From Stomorhina lunata (lineage: Eukaryota > Arthropoda > Insecta > Diptera > Rhiniidae), in contig OW121741.1 in NCBI GenBank assembly GCA_933228675.1, forward strand, positions 115,070,694 through 115,134,693: 64,000 bases of DNA, read 5' to 3'. The position numbers and the translations under genes were made by a program. Within the stretch, counting starts at the first letter, position 1; each line of letters begins with the position of its first letter. Positions 12,880 through 59,130 of this stretch are shown here, one piece after another. The notes below the pieces were generated by a model, which was given only the letters and a program-made list of their open reading frames with translations, was not told where the DNA came from and searched no databases.

Positions 12880-15740
12880 AAATTTTTTTTAAATTAAAAA
12901 TTTGTAATCGCATTTTTATATTGAAATTTTACTCGCAAACATTTTTTTATTTAAAAATTTTCCAATTGAAAATTTTCTATTAAAAAATTGTTCAAAAATT
13001 TTCTACTAAAATATTTCAAAAATTTTCTATTTAAAAAATTTTTTAAAAATTTTCTTTTAAAATATCAAAAATTTTGTATTGAAAATTTTTTTAACAATTT
13101 TCTATCAAAAAATTTTTTTAAAATTTCTATAGAAAATTTTTTAAAAATTCTATTGAAAAATTTTTCAAAAAATTCCTATTCAAAAATTTTTCAACAATTT
13201 TCTATTTAAAATTTTTACTTGCAAATCTTTTTTTTTTTTTTCTATTGAAAAAAATTACATTTAAAATTTTCTATTGAAAAAATTTTCAAAAAATTTCTAA
13301 TAAAAATTTTTTTTTAAATTTTCTACAGAAATTTTTTTTTAAATTTTCTATTAAAAAATTTTACAAAAATTTTTTATTTTTCAAAAACCTTATATTAAAA
13401 ATTTTTTCACTCATTTTTATTTTTTTTGAAAAATTCTTCAAAAATTTCAATAAAAAATTTATTTAAAAAATTTTCTATTTAAAATTTTTACTTGCATAAA
13501 TTTTTATTTTCTATTGTAAAATTTTACATTTAAAATTATTGTATTAACAAATTATTCCACATTAAATATCTTTCATTTAAAAAATTTTACATTAAATAAT
13601 TCTATAAATTTAACAATTTCTATTAAAAATATTCTAACAAAAATTTTTGTATTGAAACATTTTTTTTGCAAAAACTTTTCAAAAATTGTTTATTTAAAAT
13701 TTGTACTTGCAGAAGTATTTTTGCTATTAAAATATTTGACATAAAAAATTGTATTGTGAAAATATTTTTCTTTTAAAAATTTTATATCGATAAGATTTCT
13801 ATTCAAAATTTTACATTTAATTTAATTTCTATTTAAAATATTATATTAAAAAATTTTCTACTTAAAAATTTTTCAGACAACAAATTTCCATTGATATAAA
13901 ATTTAAAAAAAAAATTACACTTATAATTTTTTTCTTTTAGTAAATTTTGAATCAAATATTGTTCAAAGCAAGCATTTTTTTTAATTATATTGAAGTTTTT
14001 TCTATAAAAAAATTTTATACCATCATTTTTTTTCTTTTAGAAAAATATAAAATTTAGACCATTTAAATCCAAAAATCTTCTATTGAAAAAATTACATTGA
14101 TAAATATTCTTTTAAATAATTTGACATCAAATATTTTTCTTCAAAAAAAGCGAAGATTATTGTATCAAAATTTTTTTCCATTAAAATATTTTGAAAAAAA
14201 AAAAAAATTGAAATTTTAGAATGAAAATTTGTCTATTTTAAAATTTTACTCAAGAATTTTTATAATTAAAACTTTACCTTAAAATTTTTCTATTGAAACA
14301 TTTTACATTGAAAAATTGTTATTCTTTTGAGAAATTTTATCTCAAACATTTTTTTAAAAATTTTTTATTGAAAAGTCATGAATCGAAAATTTTTCTATTA
14401 AAAAATTTTACTTTGTAATTTTTCATTTAAAATTTTTAAATTAAAAATTTTTGATTTAAAATTTTTAAATTAAAAATTTTTCCATTGAAAAGTTTTCTTT
14501 TAAAAAATTATACATCAGATGTGGTAAAAAAAAAATATTTTTTTTTGTTAAAAAATTTGGCAGAAAAATTTTGTTTCCTATTAGAAAATTTAATTTTGAA
14601 AATTTTCCTATTGCCAAATTTTTAATAAAAAATTTGTGTATTGAAAATTTTTACTAAGAAATATTATTTTAAAAAATTTTGCATTAAACTTTTCTATTGA
14701 AAAATTTATCTTTGATGAATTTTCTTTTAAGAAATTTTTGATCCAAAATTGTTCTATTGAAAAATTTTATATTGACAATTTTTCTTTTAAGAAATTTTAC
14801 ATCAAACATTGTTCTATACAAAAAATTTTCCATTGCAAATTTATCTTTCGAAAAATTTTGCAGAAAATTTTTTTATTGTTTTGTTTTAAAATTTTAGAAT
14901 GAAGATTTTTCCATTGAAAAATTTTACAACGAAAATTTTTATTTTAAAAAAATTAACAACGAAAATTTTTATTTTGAAAAATTTAACATTTAAAATTTTT
15001 CTATTGAAAGATTTTACATTTAAAATTTGAAAAATTTTATTTTTATAATTTTTCTCTAAAAAATTTTACATCAAAAATTGTTTCATTAGAAAATTTACAT
15101 TTTTTTTTTTAAATATTACATTAAATTTTTTTTTTATATAGAAATAGTTTTGTTTTAAACAATTTTCAAGCAAAAACTTTTCTTCTGTTTGATAATTTTA
15201 AAATTTTAGATTGAATGTTTTTTAACGAAAAAAATTTACTTACGAAAAAAACTTTCTATATAAAAAACGTTTACATCTCGAAAAATTTTCTGTAAAAAAT
15301 TGTATGCAAAAAATTTTCTATTGCAAAGTTTTGAATCAAAAATATTTGTTTTGAAAAATTTTACTTTGGTAATTTTTCTCTTAAAAAAATTTACATCAAA
15401 AATTGTTTCATTGAAAAATTTTACATTGACAATTTTTCTTTTATAAATTTTACATCAAATTTCGTTATATAGAAAAAGTTTTCTGTTGAAGAACTTTGCA
15501 ACAATTATTATTTTTTTTTTCTATTAAATAGAAAATTTAATAATTTTAGATTGTATTTTCTATTGAAAAATTTTACTTAGAAAATTTGTGTTTTAAAAAT
15601 TTTTATATTGAAATTTTTCAATTGAAATATTTTACATTGAAAAATTTTATCTCGAAACATTAAAAAAAAAAATTGTATCCAAAAAAGTTTCTATTAAAAA
15701 GTTTTGAATCAAAAAAAATTTCTAAAAAGTTTAACTTTAG
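12880..15740. repeat. Degenerate A+T satellite
   Basis: Almost 3 kb of irregular units alternating 'aaaattttctattgaaaa', 'aaattttacattgaaaa' and 'atttttcttttaaaaa'. The spacing is roughly 20-45 bp, with no clean period. It resembles the other 'ttttcta-aaaa' arrays but is much more diverged. The short frames it yields are F/K/N-rich translations of the repeat. Confidence 0.8.
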
Positions 15741-16048
15741 TGTATTGCACTAAGATCCTAATTTATTACAATTATTTATTATTGTTATAAATAGTTTTTT
15801 GATAAAACCAAAAAATGTTTGTTGCGGAAACCTTTCCTCGACGCGTTTCGATGGTTGGTTAGGCCATCTCATCAGGGGGATTATCCCTACTTCTAGACAG
15901 AACAAAAACCACACATTATATGTTTCTTTCGGGACAGAATAAATAAGAATTATTGCGTATAACAATTATCAACATAAAGTGAAGATTATGATTTGAACAG
16001 AAACACATTTTTAAGATTTATCTTTTCTTTAACACTTTTGTTGGCGAC
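15741..16048 (-). mobile_element. Penelope-like element fragment inserted in satellite
   Basis: The degenerate satellite stops near 15740 and resumes near 16049. The interposed sequence is more complex and holds, on the minus strand, 'ctgatgagatggcc' followed by 'catcgaaacgcgtcgag'. Motifs of the form CTGATGA-stem-GAAACGCGT are characteristic of the terminal regions of Penelope-like retroelements, which carry hammerhead ribozymes. No reverse transcriptase or GIY-YIG coding region is present, so this is only a terminal fragment. Assignment rests on the ribozyme-like motif alone. Confidence 0.5.
15835..15881 (-). ncRNA. Hammerhead ribozyme motif (type I, minimal helix III)
   Basis: Minus strand, in order: CTGATGA (15875-15869); helix II GATGG (15868-15864) pairing perfectly with CCATC (15854-15850) across a 9-nt loop; GAAA (15849-15846); a two-pair helix III (A-U, C-G) closing a 2-nt loop; and cleavage-site GTC ending at 15840. 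Helix I is short: CCCC+T (15876-15880) against G-A-G-G-A (15839-15835), four pairs with one C/A mismatch. All core residues of the hammerhead are present. A very short helix III is typical of Penelope-associated hammerheads. Activity is not shown. Confidence 0.6.
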
Positions 16049-16275
16049 TAAAAAATTTTACTTTGATAATTTTTCTTTTAAAAAATTTTACATAAAAAAT
16101 TGTTCTATTATAAAATTTTACATTGATATTTTTTTTTTTTGTTTTAAATTTTTCTTCCGTTTTTTCGAAAAATTTTCTTCCGTTAAAATATTTTTACATT
16201 TTCGATTAAGTATTTTTCTATTAAAAAATTTAAGATTGGAAATTTTTCTATTAAAATATTTTACATTAAAAAATT
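16049..16275. repeat. Degenerate A+T satellite, continuation
   Basis: Same unit style as 12880-15740 ('aaaaaattttactttgataa', 'atttttctattaaaa'). It resumes after the Penelope-like insertion, so the two stretches were once a single array. Confidence 0.75.
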
Positions 16276-38045: not shown

Positions 38046-39632
38046 TCTTACTTTTTTATAGAAAATGATTCTCATTCATCGAAAAATATTCTAAAGAAAA
38101 TGATTCTCATTCATCCAAAAATATTCTAAAGAAAATGATTCTCATTCATCGAAAAATTTTCTATAGAAAATTATTCTATTTCATCGAAAAACATTCTATA
38201 GAAAATTATTCTCTTTCATCGAAAAATTTTCTATAGAAAATTATTCTCTTTCATCGAAAAATTTTCTATAGAAAATTATTCTCTTTCATCGAAAAATTTT
38301 CTATAGAAAATTATTCTCTTTCATCGAAAAATTTTCTATAGAGAATTATTCTCTTTCATCGAAAAATTTTCTATAGAGAATTATTCTCTTTCATCGAAAA
38401 ATTTTCTATAGAGAATTATTCTCTTTCATCGAAAAATTTTCTATAGAAAATTATTCTCTTTCATCGAAAAATTTTCTATAGAAAATTTTTCTCTTTCATC
38501 GAAAAATTTTCTATAGAAAATTATTCTCTTTCATCGAAAAATTTTCTATAGAAAATTATTCTCTTTCATCGAAAAATTTTCTATAGAAAATTATTCTCTT
38601 TCATCGAAAAATTTTCTATAGAAAATTATTCTATTTCATCGAAAAATTTTCTATAGAAAATTATTCTATTTCATCGAAAAATTTTCTATAGAAAATTATT
38701 CTCTTCCATCGAAAAATTTTCTATAGAAAATTATTCTCTTTCATCGAAAAATTTTCTATAGAAAATTATTCTCTTTCATCGAAAAATTTTCTATAGAAAA
38801 TTATTCTCTTTCATCGAAAAATTTTCTATAGAGAATTATTCTCTTTCATCGAAAAATTTTCTATAGAGAATTATTCTCTTTCATCGAAAAATTTTCTATA
38901 GAAAATTATTCTCTTTCATCGATAAATTTTCTATAGAAAATTATTCTCTTTCTTTCATCGACAAATTGTCTATAGAAAATTCTTCTCTTTCATCGAAAAA
39001 TTGTCTATAGAAAATTATTCTCTTTCATCGAAAAATTTTCTATAGAAAATTCTTCTCTTTCATCGAAAAATTTTTTATAGAAAATTCTTCTCTTTCATCG
39101 AAAAATTTTCTATAGAAAATTCTTCTCTTTCATCGAAAAATTTTCTATAGAAAATTCTTCTCTTTCATCGAAAAATTTTCTATAGAAAATTCTTCTCTTT
39201 TATCGAAAAATTTTCTGTAGAAAATTCTTCTCTTTCATCGAAAAATTTTCTATAGAAAATTCTTCTCTTTCATCGAAAAATTTTCTATAGAAAATTCTTC
39301 TCTTTCATCGAAAAATTTTCTATAGAAAATTCTTCTCTTTCATCGAAAAATTTTCTATAGAGAATTATTCTCTTTCATCGAAAAATTTTCTATTGAAAAT
39401 TATTCTCTTTCATCGATAAATTTTCTATAGAAAATTATTCTCTTTCATCGAAAAATTTTATATAGAAAATTCTTCTCTCTCATCGAAAAATTTTCTATAG
39501 AAAATTCTTCTCTCTCATCGAAAAATTTTCTATAGAAAATTATTCTCTTTCATCGATAAATGTATACAAAATTTTTCTCTATCACTAAAAAATTTTCGTT
39601 AGAAAACTGTTGTCTTTCATCGAAAAATTTAT
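38046..39632 (-). repeat. 35-bp CGATGAAAG satellite, array 1 (minus orientation)
   Basis: About 44 units of 'tctttcatcgaaaaattttc' followed by 'tatagaaaattattc'. Each unit contains the palindrome AAATTTTCTATAGAAAATTT and the word TCATCGA. Units at 38060-38150 and after 39540 are diverged, while the middle is nearly uniform, with local sub-types ('ttattc' versus 'ttcttc'). It is the reverse complement of the arrays at 41991 and 57690. Confidence 0.95.
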
Positions 39633-41990: not shown

Positions 41991-43226
41991 AAAAATGTTA
42001 GTAAAAACTTTCAACAAAAGTGAAAAATTTTCCACAGAAAATGTTTCGATGAAAGTGAAAAATTTTCTATAGAAAGTGAAAAATTTCACTTTCGTCGAAA
42101 ATTTTTCGATGAAAGTGAAAAATTTTCTATAGAAAATTTTTCGATGAAAGTGAAAAATTTTCTATAGAAAATTTTTCAATGAAAGTGAAAAATTTTCTAT
42201 AGAAAATTTTTCGATGAAAGTGAAAGTGAAAAATTTTCTATAGAAAATTTTTCGATGAAAGTGAAAAATTTTCTATAGAAAATTTTTCGATGAAAGTGAA
42301 AAATTTTCTATAGAAAATTTTTCGATGAAAGTGAAAAATTTTCTATAGAAAATTTTTCGATGAAAGTGAAAAATTTTCTATAGAAAATTTTTCGATGAAA
42401 GTGAAAAATTTTCTATGAAAGTGATGAAAGTGAAAAATTTTCTATAGAAAATTTTTCGATGAAAGTGAAAAATTTTCTATAGAAAATTTTTCGATGAAAG
42501 TGAAAAATTTTCTATAGAAAATTTTTCGATGAAAGTGAAAAATTTTCTATAGAAAATTTTTCGATGAAAGTGAAAAATTTTCTATAGAAAATTTTTCGAT
42601 GAAAGTGAAAAATTTTCTATAGAAAATTTTTCGATGAAAGTGAAAAATTTTCTATAGAAAATTTTTCGATGAAAGTGAAAAATTTTCTATAGAAAATTTT
42701 TCGATGAAAGTGAAAAATTTTCTATAGAAAATTTTTCGATGAAAGTGAAAAATTTTCTATAGAAAATTTTTCGATGAAAGTGAAAAATTTTCTATAGAAA
42801 ATTTTTCGATGAAAGTGAAAAATTTTCTATAGAAAATTTTTCGATGAAAGTGAAAAATTTTCTATAGAAAATTTTTCGATGAAAGTGAAAAATTTTCTAG
42901 AGAAAATTTTTCGATGAAAGTGAAAAATTTTCTATAGAAAATTTTTCGATGAAAGTGAAAAATTTTCTATAGAAAATTTTTCGATGAAAGTGAAAAATTT
43001 TCTATAGAAAATTTTTCGATGAAAGTGAAAAATTTTCTATAGAAAATTTTTCGATGAAAGTGAAAAATTTTCTATAGAAAATTTTTCGATGAAAGTGAAA
43101 AATTTTCTATAGAAAATTTTTCGATGAAAGTGAAAAATTTTCTATAGAAAATTTTTCGATGAAAGTGAAAAATTTTCTATAGAAAATTTTTCGATGAAAG
43201 TGAAAAATTTTCTATAGAAAATTTTT
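41991..43226 (+). repeat. 35-bp CGATGAAAG satellite, array 2
   Basis: About 35 units of 'tttttcgatgaaagtgaaaa' plus 'attttctatagaaaa'. Units are almost identical from 42230 on; a CTAGAG variant sits at 42897. The left edge is diverged and contains an inverted piece ('ttcactttcgtcgaaa', about 42087). The array ends at the DINE-like fragment starting near 43227. Confidence 0.95.
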
Positions 43227-43830: not shown

Positions 43831-44750
43831 TAGAAATTTATTTCTTTAGTGTTTGTTGATAAAATTTCTCCGAGTGTATTTTTGTTACTATTTCAATAAA
43901 GTTTTATATCTAAAATGTTTATTATCATGTTATAAACATTAAATTTTTACAATTTAATGTTTGTTAATTAAAATAATTTGTAAGTAAAGAGTTTTCCTGC
44001 AGATAAAAGGAAAATATACTAATACTATAAAAAACCGAATTTGGGTTACTTTCTAATTGCCAAGGTGTCCTGTCACTAGGAAAAAAGAGGCCATTTTTCA
44101 TATTTAGAGAAAGTAAGTTTTGCCAAAAGCAGCACGAATGACGCCAGTATGTATAAATATAAATTTGGTAGTGAATGTAAAAGTAGCTAAAAAAATCTTA
44201 CAAATTTTTGTACATGTTCATTCATATGCTATTTGTAAAGTCGCGTTAATAAATATCCATTTTGTTTGGGTTAAAAACATAAATCAAGATGGAAGACCAC
44301 AGAAGAGCGAAAGCCAAAAATGCAACAAAAATTAACTTGATTTTTTTTTGTTGTTTTTTTCTAGGTTTTAAGGTGGTGATTTTCTTCAATTTATTTACTT
44401 TTTTCCGGTTGCAAAACAGTTTCTATGTGGAGCGGACTCAAAACCCTTATTTCCCTAATATGATGTTATTACAATATTTTTTTCCTGTTGGCTATTTTTT
44501 TCATATTATTTGTTTTGCGTGTTTGTTTTGTCATCTTCATCACTGCCATCATATTAGATGGTTCGTTGGTTGGGTGTGAGAAAGAAATTTTCAAAAATGA
44601 AATTTCCTTTTTCAGAGACTTTAGCAAATTTAAAAATATAACCAAAAACTCAGAGCATTCAGCAAAAAGTTCGTTCCACTGATGTGATTTGTTTACTTCA
44701 GTCATGTTTCCCGTTGTTGAAACCTTTTATAAATTGGTTGATTTGCTTCT
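43831..44750. other. Non-repeat part of the duplicated segment, first copy
   Basis: Unique-looking apart from its duplicate. Overlapping short frames (up to 96 codons) occur on both strands, but the T-rich composition and the lack of any domain argue against coding. Their apparent conservation is only the recent duplication. Confidence 0.55.
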
Positions 44751-45139
44751 TTTTCGATGAAAGTGAAAAATTTTCTATAGAAAATTTTTCGATGAAAGTG
44801 AAAAATTTTCTAGAGAAAATTTTTCGATGAAAGTGAAAAATTTTCTATAGAAAATTTTTCGATGAAAGTGAAAAATTTTCTATAGAAAATTTTTCGATGA
44901 AAGTGAAAAATTTTCTATAGAAAATTTTTCGATGAAAGTGAAAAATTTTCTATAGAAAATTTTTCGATGAAAGTGAAAAATTTTCTATAGAAAATTTTTC
45001 GATGAAAGTGAAAAATTTTCTATAGAAAATTTTTCGATGAAAGTGAAAAATTTTCTATAGAAAATTTTTCGATGAAAGTGAAAAATTTTCTATAGAAAAT
45101 TTTTCGATGAAAGTGAAAAATTTTCTATAGAAAATTTTT
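44751..45139 (+). repeat. 35-bp CGATGAAAG satellite, array 2b
   Basis: Eleven units identical in type to the end of array 2, including the CTAGAG variant at 44810. Its separation from array 2 comes from the 1,913-bp duplication. Confidence 0.95.
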
Positions 45140-47649: not shown

Positions 47650-49283
<1,634 letters not shown>

Positions 49284-55131: not shown

Positions 55132-55222
<91 letters not shown>

Positions 55223-55250
55223 GGACGGACGGACGGACGGACGGACGGAC
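55132..55250. repeat. (GACA)n-(GACG)n microsatellite of copy E
   Basis: About 22 uninterrupted GACA units followed by about 7 GACG units, at the (GTCY)n position of the DINE-like element. The D-R-Q-T and S-V-C-L frames here are its translations. Confidence 0.95.
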
Positions 55251-55252
55251 AT

Positions 55253-55984: not shown

Positions 55985-57690
55985 AACAAGTAAGAGTGTT
56001 ATATTCGGCTGTGCCAAATCTTATATTACCACCATCAAGTTGTATTAAGTTTAGTACCATATCTTATATATCTACGAGGGTGCATCTAATTTAAAAAGTG
56101 GACCAAATTTGTAAAAATTTGTTCAGCTAATCACAAATCTTTGGACTAAAGTCGGTTACAGTAACTTTATAGTTCAATATTTAAAAGTATCTAAGAGGCT
56201 TCCTTAGTATTTACTTTGAACAAAATTCGGTCTGATAACCGGATATAGTTTTACATTAATAATTTGTTAAATACTTTTCGTTGTGCTTAATATGAAGTTA
56301 GACCAAACACTTTGATAGTAATACAGTAGGTCCATATAATTTTTTAGGAGTTCCTAATGCATCTACCGTATATAGAGTCTGGACTTAGCATTAATTGACA
56401 GCTATCTAACTTCGTAGGTGCTATCTTAATATACTGTCTGTACCTCCAATTCTTTTTGATTGTATATATAAAAATAGCATGTTATATATATAAGAACTAT
56501 AGGCAAATGTTGACCGATTGTCACAAAATTTCATACACTGGCTCGTATTTATAAAAGGCTTATTTATATGAAATTTGGTGGCCATAGCTGTCATAGTTTA
56601 TAATTTAATAGCTTTTAGCTGTCGTTTGTGGCATTTTAGTGGTTTCCGGATTAGTTATTATATGAAAGTTATAATCTAATATGGACCGATTACCATAAAA
56701 TTTATTTTTTTTTATTTATTATGTTATAAGCCTTTTTGGCCAAATCAATCCAGCTTTATCATATGGCAAATACAAATGAATCTTACAAAATAAATTTCTT
56801 ATCGAATTTATAAATTTGATATACTGACCAATAGTTGCATAAAACTTCTCTGTTCTTAATTATGTCGTAATACCTATTACAATTGTATTCAATTTATCAG
56901 CATTAATGTGATTCCCGGGGTTATATGGGAGCTCTAACTAAGTGTGAACCGATTTCGCCCATTTTCAATACACAACTTTTTCAAGACATCGAAAATACTT
57001 TTGTAAAATTTTGTCACTATAGCTCTTTTCGTAAAGGCGCTATCGCACTTTCATTTAAACCCTCTATCTTTTTGGTATTTTTGTGTTTCCGTAAGTTTTT
57101 ATATGGGAGATATTGTCAAATGGTGACCGATTGTGACAAAATTTTGCACAATGGCTAACATTGACATAAGACTTCCTTGAACTAAATTTAATAGCCATTG
57201 CTTATCATTCATTCGCATTTAAGTATATTTTAGTTGCAATTTGGGCTGTTTTCGGAAATGTTATATATGGGAGCTATGGTTAAATATAAACCGATTATGA
57301 TAAAATTTTAGACCCTGAATAACGATCGTGTAAAACTTCTCAGTGCTAAATTTAATATATCTGTTATAATTTGTTATTTATTAGTAAAAAAGCAATTGAC
57401 TTATGTGAGGTTATACGGGAGCTACGGTCAAGTGCAAACCGATTTTGCCCAATTTTGATTTTTCCAAAAAATGAGGAATATTTTTGCTAAATTTCAGTGA
57501 CCTAGCTCCTTTCGTTCAGGCTTTATCGTGCCGACAACAGATAGACATGCGGACAGACTTAAGGACAGACAGACGAACAGATACACGGACAGACAGACAG
57601 ACTGACATGCGCACAGACGTACGAATAGATAGAAAGACAGACAGATATCGCTCAATCGTTTCTTTTGATTTGTCCCTCAAAAGATTAAGA
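55985..57690 (-). mobile_element. DINE-like element (copy F)
   Basis: Starts with the full tail 'aacaagtaagagtgttatat' plus 'tcggctgtgccaaatctta' and runs collinear with copy E to 'cgtgccgacaacagatagac' and a decayed (GACA)n at 57550-57650. Then 'tatcgctcaatcgtttc' follows and the 35-bp satellite begins, so the hairpin end is missing. It serves as the empty-site reference for the four insertions in copy E. Itself interrupted at 56704-56811. Confidence 0.8.
56704..56811 (-). mobile_element. Truncated retroposon 3' end nested in copy F
   Basis: On the minus strand the insert ends 'ttggccaaaaaggcttataa' then 'cataataaataaaaaaaaat', a poly(A)-type tail with AATAAA. AAATTT flanks both sides. Copies E and G continue uninterrupted ('ttcaataaaatttgatatgc' in G). 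Probably a LINE or SINE 3' fragment. Confidence 0.65.
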
Positions 57691-59130
57691 TTTTCTTTAG
57701 AAATTTTCTTGATGAAAGAAAAATATTTTCTATAGAAATTTTTTCGATGAAAGTGAAGAATTTTCTATAGAAAATTTTTCGATGAAAGAGCAAAATTTTG
57801 TATAGAAAATTTTTCGATGAAGGAGAAGAATTTTCTATAGAAAATTTCTTGATAAAAGAAAAAAATTTTCTATGGAAAATTTTTCGATGAAAGAGAACAA
57901 TTTTGTATAGAAAATTTTTTGATGAAAGAGAAGAATTTTCTATAGAAAATTTTTCGATGAAAGAGAAAAATTTTCTATAGAATATTTTTCGACGAAAGAG
58001 TAGAATTTTCTATAGAATATTTTTCGATGAAACAGTAGAATTTTCTATAGAATATTTTTCGATGAAGCACTAGAATTTTCTGTAGAATATTTTTCGATGA
58101 AAGAGAAGAATTTTGTATACAAAATATTTCGTGAAAGAGAAGAATTTTCTATAGAAAATTTTTCGATGAAAGAGAAGAATTTTCAATAGAAAATTTTTCG
58201 ATGAAAGAGAAGAATTTTCAATAGAAAAGTTTTTGTTGAAAAAGAAGAATTTTCTAAAAAAAATTTTCGATGAAAGAGAACAATTTTCTATAGAAAATTT
58301 TTCGATGAAAGATAAAAATTTTCTATAGAAAATTTTTCGATAAAAGAGAACAATTTTCTATAGAAAATTTTTCAATGAAAGAGAACAATTTTCTATAGAA
58401 AATTTTTCGATGAATGAGAACAATTTTCTATAGAAAATTTTTCGATGAAAGAGAACAATTTTCTATAGAAAATTTTTCGATGAAAGAGAACAATTTTCTA
58501 TAGAAAATTTTTCGATGAAAGAGAACAATTTTCTATAGAAAATTTTTCGATGAAAGAGAACAATTTTTCGATGAAAGAGAACAATTTTCTATAGAAATTT
58601 TTTCGATGAAAGAGAACAATTTTCTATAGAAAATTTTTCGATGAAAGAGAACAATTTTCGATAGAAAATTTTTCGATGAAAGAGAACAATTTTCTACAGA
58701 AAATTTTTCGATGAAAGAGAACAATTTTTATAGAAAATTTTTCGATGAAAGTGAAAAATTTTTATATAAAATTTTTCGATGAAAGAGAACAATTTTCTAT
58801 AGAAAATTTTTCGATGAAAGAGAAGAATTTTCTTTAGAAAGTTTTGAACTGAAAGAAAAAAATTTTCTATAGAAAATTTTTCGATGAAAAAGAAGAATTT
58901 TCTATAGAAATTTTTTCAGTGAAAGAAAAGAATTTTCTATAGAAATTTTTTCAGTGAAAGAAAAAAATTTTCTATAGAAAATTTTTCTATGAAAGAGTAG
59001 AATTTTCAATAGAAAAGTTTTCGATGAAAAAGAAGAATTTTCTTTAGAAAATTTTTCGATAATTGATAACAAATTTCTATAGAAAATTTCGCGGTGAAGG
59101 ATTACAATTTTCTATATTAACTTTCTTTTT
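57690..59130 (+). repeat. 35-bp CGATGAAAG satellite, array 3
   Basis: About 41 units of 'tttttcgatgaaagagaaca' (or 'agaaga', 'aaaaa') plus 'attttctatagaaaa'. Units between 58340 and 58730 are the most uniform; both ends are diverged. One unit near 58560 lacks its palindrome half. Joined directly to DINE-like copy F on its left. Confidence 0.95.

What the first reader, a model, noticed from the sequence alone, without database searches (positions are those of the whole stretch)
15835..15881. Complete hammerhead-ribozyme core in a Penelope-like remnant embedded in a satellite
The minus strand has every conserved core element in order: CTGATGA, a perfect 5-bp helix II, GAAA, a two-pair helix III and a GTC cleavage site. 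A plausible helix I has one mismatch. Hammerheads with minimal helix III are known from Penelope-like elements. Here the motif sits in about 300 bp that interrupts an A+T satellite, with no reverse transcriptase nearby, so it could be transcribed with the array or be a retrozyme-like relic.
Basis: partly seen in the sequence, partly recalled or inferred. Interest (0 to 1): 0.75.

Follow-up and report, generated by a model that had tools for sequence, protein, structure and literature searches.

The report
Fly hammerhead retroelement with Penelope-type ends
The spot is an old, shortened copy of a small mobile element with a self-cutting-RNA (hammerhead) motif, present thousands of times in this probably fly genome, whose copies end and pair up like those of Penelope-like elements, suggesting that Penelope enzymes move it.

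Summary
The hammerhead core is really at 15835-15881 (minus strand): a descriptor scan finds one site in the window against 0.16 expected. The exact core occurs 3,144 times in the genome (reversed control 0). It belongs to a non-coding 484-488 bp element in at least two families, which share the ribozyme (50 of 55 columns) far more than the rest (276 of 461). Young copies form tandem arrays of up to 13 full units. Copies end at one of two sites about 34-40 nt apart. Two-armed insertions point their 3' ends outward, 13 of 13. Penelope-like elements (PLEs) in this genome do likewise: two end sites 34 nt apart in one family, 25 of 25 opposite endonuclease pairs outward. So this is a retrozyme-like element, most likely moved by PLE enzymes. 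The window copy (about 15722-16053) is one 5'-truncated relic with a private helix-I mismatch, probably a poor ribozyme. Helix III (ACGCGU) is palindromic, suggesting cleavage as dimers. Cleavage, circular RNA and the helper are inferred, not shown; Rfam models and single-strand folding do not support the hammerhead.

The parts
15722..16053 (-). one 5'-truncated copy of the hammerhead element (family 1); 3' end at the proximal end site A (CTTTTTA); ends approximate
   Evidence: alignment to a young unit, 325 of 361 aligned bases identical, gaps not counted; 87-90% identity to the seven next best copies
15876..15880 (-). helix I, 5' strand TCCCC (TCCTC in 33 of 40 copies; TCCCC in this one alone)
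15869..15875 (-). core CUGAUGA
15850..15868 (-). helix II GATGG/CCATC with 9-nt loop CCTAACCAA
15846..15849 (-). core GAAA
15840..15845 (-). CGCGUC: with the preceding A, palindrome ACGCGU (two pairs as monomer, six as dimer), then C17; predicted cut after 15840
   Evidence: dimer pairing is inference
15835..15839 (-). helix I, 3' strand GAGGA
15765..15788 (-). hairpin downstream of the ribozyme; kept in family 2 with changed bases on both sides
   Evidence: sequence; family comparison and folds
14574..15649 (.). A+T repeat arrays on one side (target region)
   Evidence: Tandem Repeats Finder
16049..16139 (.). A+T repeat array on the other side

Best explanation
The site is a decayed copy of a non-autonomous retroelement of the animal non-LTR retrozyme kind, mobilised in trans by Penelope-like reverse transcriptase/endonuclease. 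Model: tandem 488-bp arrays are transcribed; neighbouring hammerheads pair through the palindrome ACGCGU and cut at GUC|GAGG (inferred); unit RNAs are rejoined into circles, or uncut multimers are used (inferred, because genomic copies run across the cut site). A PLE protein nicks A+T-rich DNA and starts reverse transcription at one of two internal sites, about 118 or 156-163 nt past the cut (end positions shown; enzyme inferred). Going round a circle or along a multimer gives tandem units; starting on both DNA strands gives two arms with 3' ends outward (structures shown, process inferred). The window copy is 5'-truncated, single and mutated in helix I, so it is probably inactive or weak.
For: Copy number and exact core: 3,144 exact matches, reversed control 0. 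Ribozyme conserved between two families, 50 of 55 columns against 276 of 461 elsewhere; in 40 copies CTGANGA is kept in 32, N7 being T in 18 and A in 14. Two 3'-end clusters: 26 rows at 113-133, 19 at 156-170, one at 143; in 53 arms of 40 young insertions, 38 end at 487-488 and 14 at 449-462, one elsewhere. PLE copies of the L074 family: 2 of 9 at 62-65, 7 of 9 at 95-98. Outward arms: 13 of 13 and 25 of 25 opposite PLE endonuclease pairs. Published: a PLE starts reverse transcription at two adjacent internal sites, which fits an optional 30-40 bp tail, cuts A+T-rich DNA and extends both strands (PMC11167929, parts 1-2 of 4). The three hammerhead-to-hammerhead units of one two-armed insertion are identical. 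A 12-base string AAATCGATTTAT stands at both of its ends, though part may belong to the element. Satellite words in 13 left and 14 right flanks of 20 young insertions against 25% of random window stretches.
Against: No PLE that I sampled shares the element's own sequence, so the helper is not identified. Most target-site duplications are unclear because targets are repetitive A+T DNA. Unit 488 bp exceeds the 170-400 nt given for animal retrozyme RNAs. Folds of the window copy and of three other copies do not favour the hammerhead. Rfam finds no hammerhead above threshold. Helix I pairing across families is only modestly specific: own partners 3 to 5 of 5, crossed mean 3.2. The PLE family used as end control has a degenerate hammerhead, so its zero point is assumed. 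No RNA data. In vitro the published PLE did not need its hammerhead for insertion (PMC11167929), so the ribozyme's role is open.
Confidence: 0.75

Rival explanations
1. It is the leftover pLTR of a true Penelope-like element whose ORF was deleted, and the thousands of copies are solo pLTRs of that PLE family.
For: Same layout as PLE pLTRs: hammerhead, hairpin, then 3' end; PLEs abundant in the genome. Only part of the PLEs was read, so such a family may have been missed.
Against: No ORF-bearing PLE with this hammerhead in the loci read; units join end to beginning without an ORF, up to 13 in a row. L066 has the hammerhead 0.8 kb from a PLE but outside the part matching L074/L075.
Confidence: 0.15
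2. The arrays are ordinary satellite DNA spread by DNA-level amplification (unequal exchange, rolling circle of extrachromosomal DNA); the hammerhead is incidental.
For: Long arrays of near-identical units; satellites are common in this window.
Against: The 40 young insertions lie on C1, C2, C7, C10, C11 and C26, end at two fixed sites and, where two-armed, point outward; many copies are 5'-truncated; the ribozyme is the best conserved part compared.
Confidence: 0.07
3. The motif is a chance hammerhead look-alike with no catalytic history.
For: Sub-threshold Rfam scores; minimum-energy fold not a hammerhead.
Against: 0.16 expected per window; conservation between families; much of the core variation falls on the permitted N7 position.
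Confidence: 0.03

Closest known systems
Animal non-LTR retrozymes (Cervera and de la Pena 2020, PMC7229834, parts 1-2 of 6 and passages)
   Same: non-coding, A+T-rich, dimers to multimers in tandem, type I hammerhead, thousands of copies; the paper names PLEs as a strong candidate for mobilising them
   Different: unit 484-488 bp against about 170-400 nt; palindromic minimal helix III, whereas most invertebrate motifs are said to form a stable helix III (PMC7761336, passages); two-armed insertions and two end sites are not described in the parts I saw
Penelope-like elements and their minimal type I hammerheads (PMC11167929, parts 1-2 of 4; PMC7761336, passages)
   Same: two adjacent 3' end sites downstream of the hammerhead, tandem copies, A+T targets, very short helix III
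   Different: no ORF; CUGANGA followed directly by helix II, whereas the seven PLE sequences compared here have one extra nucleotide; little other sequence shared
Newt and salamander satellite hammerheads (PMC6155905 and PMC7229834, passages)
   Same: tandem repeats with weak helix III shown to cleave better as dimers
   Different: no sequence or insertion-end comparison was made here

Membership tests
Type I hammerhead ribozyme | core CUGANGA ... GAAA ... NUH in order | tested here: met
   window copy; CTGANGA in 32 of 40 copies and GAAACGCGTC in 32 of 40. The 11 others were chosen because they match.
Type I hammerhead ribozyme | helices I and II | tested here: met
   helix II 5 of 5; helix I 5 of 5 in the four other element copies compared, 4 of 5 in the window copy
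Type I hammerhead ribozyme | stable helix III as monomer | tested here: not met
   two pairs closing a 2-nt loop; ACGCGU palindrome
Type I hammerhead ribozyme | covariance-model match (Rfam) | tested here: not met
   the models also listed none of the PLE hammerheads in the loci
Type I hammerhead ribozyme | self-cleavage | not testable with these tools
   needs transcription assay
Type I hammerhead ribozyme | loop I - loop II tertiary contact | not tested
   possible internal loop in helix I and a 9-nt loop II, no test made
Non-LTR retrozyme | type I hammerhead in dimers to multimers of a short unit | tested here: met
   13 of 40 young insertions have two or more full units, up to 13
Non-LTR retrozyme | non-coding, low G+C | tested here: met
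   G+C 0.31 in the 308-bp fragment and in a young unit; no frame of 100 aa or more in L080
Non-LTR retrozyme | unit about 170-400 nt | tested here: not met
   484-488 bp
Non-LTR retrozyme | target-site duplications longer than 4 bp | tested here: inconclusive
   12-base string at both ends of one insertion; 20 others not readable with confidence
Non-LTR retrozyme | circular RNA expressed | not testable with these tools
   no RNA data
Penelope-like element | RT plus GIY-YIG ORF | tested here: not met
   no PLE protein match in the window, no long frame in the young array L080
Penelope-like element | two adjacent 3' end sites 30-40 nt apart | tested here: met
   PLE control

The most novel reading that the evidence does not exclude
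Retrozymes are parasites of Penelope-like elements: a hammerhead-made circular RNA is reverse transcribed by PLE protein from both strands of one DNA break, the two arms tending to start at different sites (A on one, B on the other), and going round the circle builds tandem units. Observed: one arm at each site in 11 of 13 two-armed young insertions, one with B on both, one unresolved. The search favoured insertions with a B end, and the published PLE showed no difference in start site between strands (PMC11167929), so this A/B rule is only suggestive.
Probability: 0.35. Interest if true: 0.8.

Novelty: new member of a known kind. Interest (0 to 1): 0.6.

Why it matters
Which enzyme moves animal retrozymes is open; the 2020 paper proposes PLEs from coexistence, tandem copies and shared hammerheads (PMC7229834, passages). 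Here retrozyme-like and PLE copies in one genome share an unusual double end site and outward two-armed insertions, which is more specific evidence and makes the idea testable with a published in vitro PLE assay. It also ties a hammerhead with a palindromic helix III to a tandem-unit element, where dimers would form naturally.

Tried and rejected
Rfam searches gave no hammerhead above threshold and were not decisive. Folding did not favour the hammerhead. The first idea that L066 links this hammerhead to a PLE was dropped after comparison with L074/L075. Exact core searches of viral and prokaryote collections found nothing. The 120-aa window frame found no relatives. Target-site duplications could not be read reliably in A+T repeats. 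I expected inverted junctions to start at the ribozyme cut; they vary. The MAFFT alignment A1 mis-registers helices I and III between element and PLE sequences, so pairs were counted by script instead. Rows dropped: six in-array rows, one at a locus edge and two family-2 rows (one family-2-like row, L036 at 162, was kept), one truncated row, the reference itself, and rows with identical sequence. In one search the script failed to place one edge in two of 20 insertions (C1:40969536, C26:15952).

Full report
What is there. The minus strand at 15880-15835 carries a full hammerhead core with a five-pair helix II, a two-pair helix III and a helix I with one mismatch. A scan for CTGANGA, helix II, GAA, helix III and UH with helix I found this site alone in the window; first-order Markov sequence gives 0.16 per window and 0.0004 per 308 bp.

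Copies in the genome. The window lies in an unnamed 728 Mb genome. The 308-bp fragment has 42 matches there; 2,569 first-look candidates, 40 scored. The 35-base core, with N7 and two Y open, occurs 1,574 times forward and 1,570 reverse, with 0 for the reversed pattern. The closest named relatives of a PLE protein from this genome are from Musca, Eurosta, Drosophila, Lucilia and Haematobia; the six best are unnamed. So the host is probably a fly; this is inference.

The unit. L002 shows head-to-tail units of 484 bp; a young array has 488 bp. In L080-L083 three hammerheads on one strand face two on the other; the two units between hammerheads on one strand and the one on the other are identical. 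The best matches to that unit (40 scored of 2,479 candidates, 129 matches) fall into 40 insertions, 13 with two or more full units; one on C7 has 13 full units in a row. Equal BLAST scores suggest but do not prove identical units there. Two families differ widely outside the ribozyme: 50 of 55 columns agree in the hammerhead against 276 of 461 elsewhere, comparing one copy of each. In 40 copies CTGANGA is kept in 32, with T at N7 in 18 and A in 14; helix I 5' strand is TCCTC in 33, and the window's TCCCC is seen in no other.

Ends. Change-point scoring of L001-L040, L077, L080 and L083 puts 3' ends at 113-133 nt past the cut (26 rows), 143 (1) and 156-170 (19), after dropping nine rows; chance matches in A+T flanks lengthen these a little. 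In young insertions 38 of 53 arms end at unit position 487-488 and 14 at 449-462. The query was cut to end at site B and insertions were ranked by match to it, so the first number is partly fixed by design. Site A reads AAAACTTTTTAA and site B AAACCTTTTTAA in several junctions. In 13 insertions with two arms, the 3' ends point outward in all 13.

Comparison with PLEs. A GIY-YIG search led to a PLE fragment, and its protein to 150 scored matches, several in open frames of 830-864 aa. L074 has an 832-aa open frame with a reverse transcriptase domain. Nine distinct copies of its family end at 62-65 nt (2) or 95-98 nt (7) after its hammerhead-like motif, which is degenerate (TTGAAAA for CUGANGA). 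Of 45 neighbouring endonuclease matches within 6 kb, 25 pairs lie in opposite directions and all 25 point outward; some matches are pieces of one copy. Seven PLE sequences that keep CUGANGA have an extra nucleotide after it, palindromic ACGU or AUAU in place of helix III, and cut triplets GUC, GUA, GUU or AUU. Distinct helix-II arms pair 5 of 5 with their own partners and 2.9 when crossed; helix I is less specific, 3 to 5 of 5 against 3.2.

Literature. Animal non-LTR retrozymes are tandem repeats with type I hammerheads, and PLEs were proposed as their movers (PMC7229834, parts 1-2 of 6 and passages; PMC7761336, passages). A purified PLE starts reverse transcription at two adjacent internal sites, which fits an optional 30-40 bp tail, prefers A+T DNA and extends both strands; its hammerhead was not needed for insertion in vitro (PMC11167929, parts 1-2 of 4). 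Dimer cleavage with weak helix III is known in newts (PMC6155905, passages). The 2014 PLE hammerhead paper was not held and I know it only as cited. Searches listed no title on a fly retrozyme with PLE ends; PMC7936874 reports type III hammerheads in dipterans (passages).

Reading. The element is built like a retrozyme and inserts like a PLE. It is not a PLE by content, since it has no ORF. Because copies cross the ribozyme cut, the template was uncut, multimeric or circular. Identical units within an array fit one circular template but also a copied homogeneous array. A+T satellite flanks are frequent in 20 young insertions fetched of the 40 (12 of 13 two-armed, 8 of 27 others): 13 left and 14 right flanks of 20 against 25% in the window; the excess is weaker in older copies (15 of 40 against 11 of 80).

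Limits. No RNA evidence, no named helper, no unbiased sample of ends, and target duplications mostly unreadable.

Noticed in passing
L074, left inverted arm: The inverted arm of this PLE copy ends about at the predicted hammerhead cut rather than at the usual end sites; a single case.
   Followed up: no
G000:C11:74119079-74125413: Three PLE endonuclease matches in direct tandem, 2,977 bp apart, two in 846-aa open frames.
   Followed up: no
L056-L064, L074, L075, L087, L091: PLE copies sit against A+T repeat DNA of the CTATAGAAAATTTTT type.
   Followed up: partly
window 38052-39630, 42057-43226, 44750-45139, 57690-59116: 35-bp satellite arrays of similar unit; they give sub-threshold microRNA-model hits that look like chance.
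   Followed up: no
window 47887-48034 and 55132-55251: TCTG and GACA tetranucleotide arrays.
   Followed up: no
L083 2565-3035, minus strand: A 157-aa open frame in the flank of the young array that looks like a LINE-type reverse transcriptase end (label recalled).
   Followed up: no
L084-L086, L090, L091: Downstream of most of these PLE hammerheads a GACC...GGTC pairing recurs that could frame the reverse transcription start; the element has a similar TTGGGA...TCCCAA pairing. Seen by eye only.
   Followed up: no
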